From contig WTGO01000113.1 in assembly GCA_011523515.1 (NCBI GenBank), forward strand, positions 1 to 64,000: 64,000 bases of DNA, in the 5' to 3' direction. Below are positions 54,920-59,565 of the stretch, piece by piece. How positions within the stretch are numbered: position 1 is the first letter of the stretch; each line of letters opens with the position of its first letter. The stretch is from Chloroflexota bacterium (GTDB lineage Bacteria; Chloroflexota; Anaerolineae; Aggregatilineales; Phototrophicaceae). A program made the position numbers and the translations under genes. A model generated the notes under the pieces. That model was not told where the DNA came from and did not search any database. It worked only from the letters and a program-made list of their open reading frames with translations.

Positions 54920-54992
54920 GTGCCTGTAGCTCAGTGGATAGAGCACTGGTCTACGGAACCAGGTGTCGGGAGTTCGAATCTCTCCAGGCACG
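54920..54992 (+). tRNA. tRNA-Arg (ACG)
   Basis: A 73-base cloverleaf. The acceptor stem GTGCCTG pairs with CAGGCAC, with D stem GCTC/GAGC, anticodon stem CTGGT/ACCAG, loop CTACGGA (anticodon ACG, 54953-54955) and T stem GGGAG/CTCTC with one G-T pair around TTCGAAT. The discriminator base is G and no CCA is encoded. ACG decodes CGN arginine codons. A terminator follows. Confidence 0.96.
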
Positions 54993-55098: not shown

Positions 55099-56773
55099 TC
55101 AATCGGCCGATTGCAGCGCCTGGAAGCAAGGCGTTTCGCCCGGCGCCGGCGAGTTGACAAAAGCGCCCCGCTCAATCACCGCCTTCCGCCCGCCCAGCGA
55201 CTCGATTTTGCGCAGCTGATCCGCTTTCGCCCGCCGATCAACCGCTTCCGGATCCAGAATTTCGCGCAGCTTGGCCTCGTAATCCTTGAGCAGCTGCAGC
55301 GTCCCTTGGTCCGGATTCAACGCCAGGTCATCAGCTTCAACTGGATCAGCCGTCAAGTCGAAGAGCTGCGCCGGTCCAGAGACATGGTAGATGAACTTGT
55401 AGCGTCGGTCGCGCAGCATGAAATAAGCGCTGGGCGATCCGATCGCGTGGTATTCCGAAAACACCGTCCGGTCATGAGGATCTTCCGCTGCTATCTGCCA
55501 CAGCAACTCGCCCGGCAGCGAGCGGTCCGCTTCGTCGCGCGCGCAGCCGATCGCGTCCAGCACCGTGGGATGGCAATCCACCAGCGATATCGGCGTGTCC
55601 ACGACGCGGCCCGCCGGCACATCCGGCCCCGACATGATAAAGGGGATGGCGCAGGCTTCTTCGTACATGGTGAATTTGCCGTAGATGCCGCGCGCGCCCA
55701 GGTGCTCGCCATGATCCGAGGTATAGATCACGCGTGTCTTCTGCCGCAGATTCAGCCCGTCCAGCGCCGATAGTACGCGCCCGACTTGATCGTCAAGAAA
55801 ACTGCAAATGCCGTAATAAGTGGCGTGCAAACGGCGGATGGTCGCCTCGTCAAATGATTGCTCGCAGCTGAAAGGCTTGTCCGCTACTGGACTATTTTGA
55901 GGCGCTTATCTCTACCTCACCCCCCGACCCCCTCTCCGAATCATCGGAGAGGGGGAGCAAACCTGGCCAAATCCGGTAATTTCAGGTTGCATTGCCTTGC
56001 GAACGCGCTACCTTATGTATTGTTTTCGCATTATCCTAGTTTACTTTGTGTAAGATTTGCAGTACCGGACAAGCCTTGAAGAAGCGCCGCATATAGTCGT
56101 AAGTCGGGTGGCGCGGCCAATCGGCATCCCGCCATTGGGGCGGCAGCTGAATATCCTGGTGAGGGTAAAGCGAATAGGTTTCCGGAGGAGACAACCAAGG
56201 CGGATGCGGGGTCACGAATGACAAGAATAGCGCCCATGGCTGGGTATCATTCTGATGCGCGCGCAGCCAGCGGATAGCATTATCCCGATTGCGAATGTCA
56301 TACTGCTGATAGGTGGAATCGCCCGGTCCCGCTTCGTTTATGCCCGGCCGCCAATCACGCTGCACCGATCCGTCGCGGATGCCGCTGACCGGATCGCCAA
56401 TGCCGTCAACCACATGCAGCGGTTCAATTTCCTCGGTAAAGCCGTTGTCGTCATCCGCGCTGCGAAAATGCAGCTTGCCGATGGAATCGACGCGATGACC
56501 GGCCGCCTTCAAGCGATGCCCCCAGCCGGCGACACCGCCGTCGTAGGGAAAACCGTTGTCCCAATTGCCGATTTCGTGCACATACTGCCCCGTGGCCAGC
56601 GACGCCCGCGCCGGCACGCAGATGGGGCAGTTGGTGTATGCATTGCTGAAGCGCGTCCCGCCCGCCGCCAGCCGGTCCAGGTTGGGCGTCTGAACCAGCG
56701 GGTGCCCGGCACAGCCCATAGCGGCCGCCTGATGCTGATCGGAAATGATGAAGAGCAGGTTAGATGGACTCAT
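55099..56773 (-). pseudogene. Sulfatase gene interrupted by a MITE
   Basis: Two pieces of one sulfatase lie on either side of a 204-bp element. The N-terminal piece (56773-56077) has LLFIISDQHQAAAMGCAGHP and the formylglycine motif in CPICVPARASLATG (CxPxR). The C-terminal piece (55868-55099) has DDQVGRVLSALDGL and YTSDHGEHLGARGIYGK. After removing the element and one copy of the TGAA target duplication, the two join in frame (YDYMRRFFSCEQSFDEATIR) and give a 488-aa protein, of normal size for the family. The substrate is unknown, but nearby fucosidase and sugar transport genes suggest a sulfated glycan. Confidence 0.9.
55873..56076. mobile_element. 204-bp MITE with 17-bp terminal inverted repeats and TGAA target duplication
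   Basis: The left end AGGCTTGTCCGCTACTG (55873-55889) and the right end, read as reverse complement, AGGCTTGTCCGGTACTG (56076-56060) differ at one base. TGAA flanks both sides (55869-55872 and 56077-56080). Inside is a 12-bp hairpin (CCCCCTCTCCGA, 55928-55939, with TCGGAGAGGGGG, 55944-55955). No protein is encoded, so it must be moved by a transposase elsewhere. Confidence 0.88.
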
Positions 56774-57116
56774 GAGCTTCCTTCACGCAAATAAACGGCG
56801 ACGCCCAAAGCATAGCCCATCGCCGCGCCAGGACACAAATGCAGGGCGCGACTGAAGCGCAATGTCTTCGCGCGGCTGCGAGTCGCCCATCGCACCAATC
56901 GCGCATTTTCGGGCGACATACAATGTCGCCCCTACGACGGATCTGATACCGGATTCGCATTCCAAAGTTGGCCTTGCTTCTGTGACTGCGCGGCAACTAA
57001 TTCATTACGGCGCTCGACAATAATCAACAAAAGCGCAATTCGTTGGCGCAGCTTGCCTGGCGGAACGCGCGGGGCTACACTTCTGCAGATTGACTGCCCT
57101 ACGGAATCATACGCGC
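56774..57116. repeat. Intergenic gap with a GGGCGACAT palindrome
   Basis: A 343-bp gap between divergent genes. A perfect 9-bp inverted repeat GGGCGACAT/ATGTCGCCC with a 3-base loop (56911-56931), followed by CCTAC, is similar in character to the GGGCGAGCC hairpin at 59497. Small open frames there are not convincing genes. The remaining sequence shows nothing I can name. Confidence 0.6.
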
Positions 57117-59489: not shown

Positions 59490-59565
59490 GCTGTAGGGGC
59501 GAGCCTTGGCTCGCCCACTTGACGTAACAGCAACGTATTGATGCGGCGGGCGACCTGCCTACAAA
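59490..59565. repeat. REP-like palindromic element
   Basis: A 76-bp element bounded by TGTAGGGGCGA and a reversed GGGCGACCTGCCTACA. It contains a hairpin GGGCGAGCC-TT-GGCTCGCCC (59497-59516). It lies downstream of the fucosidase gene and shares its GTAGGGGCGA core with the palindrome at 56911-56935. Confidence 0.6.

What the first reader, a model, noticed from the sequence alone, without database searches (positions are those of the whole stretch)
55099..56773. A 204-bp MITE splits a sulfatase gene, with a clean excision frame
Seen: 17-bp terminal inverted repeats differing at one base, TGAA direct repeats exactly at both ends, no coding capacity, and sulfatase halves on either side. Removing the element and one TGAA gives 1467 bases in frame with an uninterrupted sulfatase (junction residues MRRFFSCEQSFDEATIR). 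The sharp ends and intact flanks suggest a recent insertion. It is also a clear definition of a non-autonomous element whose transposase is unknown.
Basis: partly seen in the sequence, partly recalled or inferred. Interest (0 to 1): 0.8.

Follow-up and report, generated by a model that had tools for sequence, protein, structure and literature searches.

The report
REP-targeting miniature transposon splits sulfatase gene
A short, gene-less jumping piece of DNA has landed in and broken a sulfatase gene in an uncultured bacterium, probably a Chloroflexota; sister copies, unbroken genes in relatives and a likely enzyme that moves it, often into small palindromic repeats, were found.

Summary
In detail: a 204-bp element (55873-56076) with 17-bp inverted ends (one mismatch) and TGAA duplications splits a sulfatase gene; without it and one TGAA, 1467 bases are in frame. 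It is a MITE. The same genome holds two more complete, nearly identical copies and partial ones. Of 33 congeners, 30 have a match to the sulfatase's C-terminal half, each in one long open frame; 29 of 29 fetched align without a gap at the insertion point. Thirty-seven versions of 202-207 bp from eight congeners show 4-bp duplications, identical in 29. A likely partner is found: IS elements of 1121 and 1124 bp in congeners with the same ends and an IS982-like DDE transposase; the window's own assembly shows only such IS ends at contig edges. New here: MITE and IS favour TGTA|GGGGCGA, the tag of a GTAG-type REP (16 of 32 distinct MITE sites exact, against about 0.8% of TGTA sites in the window's genome). 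The sulfatase hit is off that target. IS982-derived MITEs and REP-targeting IS are each known; my searches showed no report of both together.

The parts
55873..56076 (+). MITE, 204 bp, non-autonomous transposable element
55873..55889 (+). left terminal inverted repeat, 17 bp
56060..56076 (-). right terminal inverted repeat, 17 bp, one mismatch to the left
55869..55872 (.). target site duplication TGAA (left copy)
   Evidence: empty site in orthologues
56077..56080 (.). target site duplication TGAA (right copy)
   Evidence: empty site in orthologues
55911..55958 (.). palindromic core module (stem arms 55928-55939 / 55944-55955), also found without the rest of the MITE and in other MITE types
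56077..56773 (-). sulfatase gene, N-terminal part; carries CVPAR, fitting the sulfatase C-x-P-x-R signature (signature recalled). The ORF runs on to 56036 and stops inside the MITE
55099..55868 (-). sulfatase gene, C-terminal part
59492..59516 (+). unoccupied GTAG-type REP palindrome with the favoured target TGTA|GGGGCGA
56911..56936 (-). second REP-like palindrome (CGTAGGGGCGA...), unoccupied, outside the sulfatase gene

Best explanation
The 204-bp segment is a MITE moved in trans by the DDE transposase of an IS982-like insertion sequence that shares its ends. SHOWN: matching ends; 4-bp duplications of the form TNNA; many copies; empty sites in relatives; the same favoured target (TGTA tag of a GTAG-type REP) for MITEs and for IS copies. 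INFERRED: the transposase binds the AGGCTTGTCCG ends of the MITE as it does its own, cuts it out or copies it, and joins it across a 4-bp stagger, often at TGTA next to GGGGCGA. In this lineage one copy went off that target into TGAA of the sulfatase gene, so translation now stops inside the MITE and the C-terminal part of the enzyme is lost. The IS that supplies the enzyme in this genome is inferred from IS-type ends at contig edges; its body is not in the assembly.
For: Copies in the own genome. Duplications identical in 29 of 37 full-length copies from eight related genomes and in 4 of 6 complete elements of the own genome (window, C142, the 258-bp type at C112:44227, C7). IS with the same ends: G011 1121 bp with TGTA/TGTA and a 336-aa transposase; G023 1124 bp with a 337-aa transposase; deletion forms G004 898 bp with TGTA/TGTA and G019 238 bp with TACA/TACA. 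Transposase: PF01609 33.7 bits and PF13612 27.9 bits, both over cut-off; best NCBIfam family IS982, 115.2 bits. Shared target: GGGGCGA beside the duplication in 16 of 32 distinct MITE sites, 24 of 32 with at most one mismatch, 0 of 37 at each of five shifted registers; exact in 4 of the 7 two-ended IS or IS-deletion elements seen, 6 of 7 within one mismatch (counted by eye). IS-type ends near contig edges of the window's genome: 10 of type A, 11 of type B and 3 of type D. Empty site in 29 of 29 fetched orthologues.
Against: tblastn with the transposase finds nothing in the window's own assembly. The NCBIfam IS982 cut-off of 130 bits is not reached. MITE and IS share only about the terminal 16-18 bases. 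Eight of 37 copies in relatives lack identical duplications, as do two of six complete elements in the own genome (C102 TACA/CGTA; 225-bp type TACA/TACG). Of the seven two-ended IS or deletion elements, four have imperfect duplications: G023 TGCA/TGTA, G008 TGTA/CGTA, G016 TACA/TGTA, G006 TACA/TATA. Seventeen of 33 congeners have no transposase hit at E 1e-5, yet 12 of these 17 have matches to the 204 bp, many to the core only. In G007, which has at least 11 near full-length copies, the only transposase relative is 32% identical over 184 residues and no exact AGGCTTGTCCG end was seen in its locus. IS copies collapsed in draft assemblies may explain these gaps, but that was not shown.
Confidence: 0.87

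Rival explanations
1. The MITE is moved by a different transposase whose IS happens to share the GGCTTGTCCG ends; the IS982-like element is only a neighbour.
For: Only about 16-18 terminal bases are shared; no such transposase is in the window's assembly; G007 has many MITE copies but no close transposase relative. A nested element with an IS1595-family transposase (PF12762) sits in one related MITE, so other transposases are present in the genome.
Against: Ends, 4-bp duplication and the TGTA|GGGGCGA target agree between the IS982-like elements and the MITEs. The IS1595 element has other ends (by eye).
Confidence: 0.08
2. The element is a domesticated structured repeat (RNA or DNA signal) kept for function, with mobility in the past.
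For: Strong single-sequence folds (z -6.71 and -5.95). Length 202-207 bp although copies of congeners are only about 63-70% identical to the window copy.
Against: The consensus fold is essentially the terminal repeats plus the C/G-rich palindrome; 3 of the 4 pairs with two-sided changes lie in that palindrome and follow its alternative types (window plus 28 of the 37 copies). No Rfam match to the element. Insertion inside a gene and near-identical copies show mobility.
Confidence: 0.04
3. Assembly chimera: repeat copies joined unrelated contigs.
For: Draft assembly of 144 contigs, many ending inside these repeats.
Against: The same gene continues on both sides in frame, with a target duplication, and matches the empty site of 29 of 29 fetched orthologues.
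Confidence: 0.02

Closest known systems
MITECca01 and parental ISCca4 (IS982 family) of Cardinium cOegib (PMC9769881; search listing and passages)
   Same: Non-coding MITE of about 240 bp with the ends of an IS982-family element, probably moved in trans; deletion intermediates described.
   Different: Reported as absent from the other sequenced Cardinium strains; here versions occur in many species of one genus, with a REP-directed target and a palindromic core of more than one type. The passages seen named no target preference.
REP-targeting insertion sequences (ISPsy8, ISPpu9, ISPpu10, ISRm22 and others; PMC1525189, abstract and passages)
   Same: Insertion at a fixed point of REP palindromes.
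   Different: Families named there are IS3, IS110, IS4, IS256 and IS5; the words IS982 and MITE do not occur in that main text. Here the target is the GTA(G) tag beside the stem, and only about half of the sites fit exactly.
GTAG-tagged REP superfamily (PMC3733652; search listing and passages)
   Same: The target repeat TGTAGGGGCGA...TCGCCC is a palindrome with a GTAG tag; the paper reports GTAG repeats in Chloroflexi.
   Different: No Y1_Tnp (RAYT-type) gene found in this assembly (the control rang in 5 of 14 genomes).

Membership tests
MITE | Short, non-coding, terminal inverted repeats | tested here: met
   204 bp, 17-bp ends, ORFs wholly inside it of 22 and 26 aa only
MITE | Multiple copies with target duplications and empty sites | tested here: met
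   the empty site was tested for the window copy only
MITE | Autonomous partner with the same ends and duplication size | tested here: met
   Met in congeners; in the own genome only IS-type ends and no transposase
MITE | Actual transposition in trans | not testable with these tools
   needs an assay
IS982 family (for the partner transposase) | DDE transposase matching IS982 models | tested here: inconclusive
   Best NCBIfam hit NF033520, 115.2 bits against a cut-off of 130; PF13612 27.9 against 27 and PF01609 33.7 against 23
IS982 family (for the partner transposase) | Length about 1 kb with one transposase ORF and short inverted ends (recalled) | tested here: met
   1124 bp with 337 aa (G023), 1121 bp with 336 aa (G011)
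IS982 family (for the partner transposase) | Typical duplication size of the family (recalled as variable, often 6-9 bp) | tested here: inconclusive
   4 bp here; the family value is recalled, not from a call
REP-targeting mobile element | Fixed insertion point in REP far above background | tested here: met
   16 of 32 distinct MITE sites in congeners exact, against 111 of about 14,257 TGTA sites in the window's genome, P about 1e-25; P about 4e-10 with a tenfold more generous background. The background was not measured in the congeners themselves
GTAG-type REP (target) | GTAG tag followed by an inverted repeat | tested here: met
   29 of 30 distinct TGTAGGGGCGA sites in loci L001-L114 (11 of them congener loci) are followed by TCGCCC (one mismatch allowed) within 34 nt, against 28% at random window positions

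The most novel reading that the evidence does not exclude
These genomes hold a layered set of palindromes that spread into each other: an IS982-like transposase and its MITEs aim at GTAG-type REPs; the MITEs carry a C/G-rich palindrome module that also exists alone and differs in type between otherwise similar MITE copies; and a 20-bp palindrome (CCCGCCATCTCTATGGCGGG) sits mostly within such C-run/G-run modules. If the inner palindromes move by a hairpin-directed process of their own, this is a new kind of nested mobile repeat in bacteria.
Probability: 0.25. Interest if true: 0.65.

Novelty: new variant of a known kind. Interest (0 to 1): 0.42.

Why it matters
It turns an anonymous 204-bp insert into a defined pair (MITE plus likely IS982-like partner) with a measured target rule. 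REP-targeting by an IS982-like element and its MITEs would extend the list of IS families known to use REPs. It also shows how a repeat that often sits beside REPs can break a gene when it inserts elsewhere. Copies in eight other genomes of one genus make the birth and spread of a MITE family traceable.

Tried and rejected
Looked for the autonomous partner first in the own genome: the 1961-bp C7 element with the same ends proved to be a 258-bp-type MITE carrying a nested element with an IS1595-family transposase, not the partner. A transposase tblastn in the own assembly gave no hit. Structured-RNA reading: strong single folds, but the alignment fold shows essentially the terminal repeats and the palindrome; Rfam gives only a tRNA in the window. 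RAYT search with PF01797 in the own genome: none. Paper search for the repeat letters: 35 papers, 20 listed, all unrelated by title. Nested 20-bp palindrome: my first test, the longest perfect stem around it, showed no excess (own sites 4-7; random mean 4.7, 95th percentile 7); the C-run/G-run test was devised after seeing the sequences. The pattern scan of the genome collection also returned two loci titled Acidobacteria and Euryarchaeota (L115, L124), which I did not examine. PMC7190074 is not held. That a REP-targeting IS982-like MITE is not in print rests on listings (no hit; 12 of 14 listed) and on passages of three papers only. A search on double-hairpin elements listed a sponge mitochondrial paper on repetitive hairpin elements (PMC2800124, listing only), a possible parallel for the nested palindromes that I did not pursue.

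Full report
Observation. The finding is correct in detail. The element occupies 55873-56076 (204 bp). Its ends are 17-bp inverted repeats with one mismatch, and TGAA flanks it on both sides. It lies in a minus-strand sulfatase gene (55099-56773) whose two halves each match Pfam Sulfatase. Joining the flanks with one TGAA gives 1467 in-frame bases without an internal stop. The present N-terminal ORF ends inside the element after 245 codons.

Empty site. In the genus set of 34 genomes (the window's own included), 31 have a match to the 243-aa C-terminal ORF of the sulfatase at E 1e-40; three (G128, G021, G014) do not. All 30 non-self matches lie in one open frame of 490-694 codons without stops inside. 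Twenty-nine of those 30 loci were returned. All 29 align through the insertion point without a gap there; in the 44 bases shown around it, one row (L213) has a single-base gap about 19 bases away. Thirteen of 29 carry TTCA (TGAA on the other strand) at the point, counted by eye. No fetched relative contains the segment there.

Copies in the same genome. Complete copies lie at C102:3395-3598 (1 difference in 204) and C142:14638-14841 (3 differences); a partial copy at C33 is identical over 163 bases; contig-edge pieces lie at C69, C44 and C109. C109 and C33 look like the two sides of one copy split by another element (inference). The core AGGCTTGTCCG occurs 48 times against 2 in the reversed control. 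Two further MITE types share the ends: 258 bp (C112:44227-44484, TGTA/TGTA; also C7:10032-11992 with a nested IS1595-type element, TACA/TACA) and 225 bp (C112:10096-10320, TACA/TACG). Of six complete elements in this genome four have identical duplications; C102 (TACA/CGTA, another IS-type end follows 4 bp away) and the 225-bp type do not.

Copies in relatives. A search of the 34 genus genomes finds matches at E 1e-6 in 25, the own genome included; at most 23 candidates per genome were scored in that search, so copy numbers are lower bounds, and many matches cover the palindromic core only. I fetched 40 of the listed matches, mostly chosen for near-complete cover. In 37 of the 40 both ends were found, from eight genomes; 29 of 37 have identical 4-bp duplications: 23 TACA/TGTA, 3 TAAA, and 1 each of TATA, TAGA and TCAA, each type counted with its reverse complement. 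Lengths are 202-207 bp. Identity to the window copy is about 63-70%, while copies within G007 average 96.5%, which suggests separate bursts per lineage.

The partner. Two pairs of further end types sit at contig edges of the window's genome. Types A and C carry a conserved AGAAGGTGCTAA stretch, types B and D carry ATGAGRGTT. A scan of 154 genomes of the order found the B/D pattern in 5, the own included, and a scan of the public genome collection found 13 stretches. G023 holds a 1124-bp IS with a 337-aa transposase; its outer four bases are TGCA and TGTA. G011 holds a 1121-bp IS with a 336-aa transposase and TGTA on both sides. The transposase matches PF01609 and PF13612 over cut-off and NCBIfam IS982 at 115 bits, below the 130-bit cut-off, so I call it IS982-like rather than a certified member. 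Deletion forms exist: 898 bp in G004, 489 bp in G016, 407 bp in G006 and 238 bp in G019; the last keeps both IS ends, a remnant of the transposase gene and TACA/TACA. That is the expected route from IS to MITE. In the own assembly the transposase is absent, although 10 type-A ends and 14 type-B/D ends lie within about 80 bases of contig edges; I infer that repeated IS bodies were lost at assembly. Against this, 17 of 33 congeners have no transposase hit, 12 of them with matches to the 204 bp, and G007, rich in MITE copies, has only a 32%-identical relative.

Target rule. Of 32 distinct full-length MITE sites in relatives, 16 have GGGGCGA directly beside the duplication and 24 have it with at most one mismatch; of all 37 copies, 20 and 29; at each of five shifted registers 0 of 37. 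In the own genome 13 of 48 distinct ends have it exactly and 17 of 48 within one mismatch (an insertion as a rule shows it on one side only). TGTAGGGGCGA occurs 111 times in the window's genome (1 in the reversed control) among about 14,257 TGTA/TACA sites, extrapolated from 220 in the window: about 0.8%, P about 1e-25; with a background about ten times more generous, to allow for intergenic bias, P is about 4e-10. The background is that of the window's genome, while the 32 sites lie in congeners. The target is a GTAG-tagged palindrome: 29 of 30 distinct sites in loci L001-L114 are followed by TCGCCC within 34 nt, against 28% by chance. Selection against insertions in genes could add to the bias. 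Four of seven two-ended IS or deletion elements have the same flank exactly (by eye). The window insertion, at TGAA without GGGGCGA, is off this target; two unused REPs lie nearby at 56911-56936 and 59492-59516.

Palindromic core. Positions 55911-55958 form a C/G-rich palindrome that also occurs without the MITE in this genome and others. Among the copies of G016 (9 and 2), G021 (4 and 1) and G135 (4 and 2) two core types occur; G007 has one type in 11 of 11. The best pair with different cores is 93.5% identical outside the core and 66.7% inside. In G021 and G135 pairs with different cores are on average as similar outside the core as pairs with the same core (0.809 against 0.801; 0.846 against 0.829), but in G016 they are less so (0.778 against 0.843). 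This suggests, without proving, exchange of the core between repeats. Three of the four pairs with two-sided changes in the alignment fold lie in this core (window plus 28 of the 37 copies, nine further G007 copies left out).

Comparison. IS982-derived MITEs are known (MITECca01, PMC9769881, passages). REP-targeting IS are known in five other families (PMC1525189, abstract and passages). The combination was not seen in my searches (listings). I therefore rate it a new variant of a known kind. What remains inferred is the act of transposition in trans and the presence of an active IS in this very genome.

Organism. Contig lengths tie G023, G133, G016 and G021 to public MAGs titled Anaerolineae bacterium jk18xAbins.45 and Chloroflexi bacterium COS3_bin_1, COS2_bin_19 and CO36386bin_4, so the window's genus probably belongs to Chloroflexota (inference).

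Noticed in passing
L260-L279 (own genome) and L280-L307 (congeners): A 20-bp palindrome CCCGCCATCTCTATGGCGGG (20 copies with at most one mismatch in the own genome; present in 19 of 34 genus genomes; 0 in reversed controls) sits mostly between a C-run and a G-run: 15 of 20 own sites and 19 of 28 distinct congener sites for which loci were returned, against 4 of 5000 random window positions. A stem-length test showed no excess. A possible palindrome nested in palindromes.
   Followed up: partly
window 55911-55958; L235 and L237 (G135): The palindromic core of the MITE occurs in two main types among copies with otherwise similar sequence, and occurs without the MITE elsewhere.
   Followed up: partly
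L067 1533-3493 (G000:C7:10032-11992): A 258-bp-type MITE carries a nested element with an IS1595-family transposase.
   Followed up: partly
G000:C33 start and C109 start (L079, L078): One MITE copy appears split by another element with ends TGTAGTGGTCC.
   Followed up: no
G000:C102:3598-3603 (L071): An IS-type end lies 4 bp from a MITE end: two elements side by side.
   Followed up: no
window 54920-54992: tRNA-Arg (acg) just beyond the 3' end of the sulfatase gene, on the opposite strand.
   Followed up: no
L115, L124: The IS-end pattern also matched loci titled Acidobacteria bacterium and Euryarchaeota archaeon; chance or wider spread was not tested.
   Followed up: no
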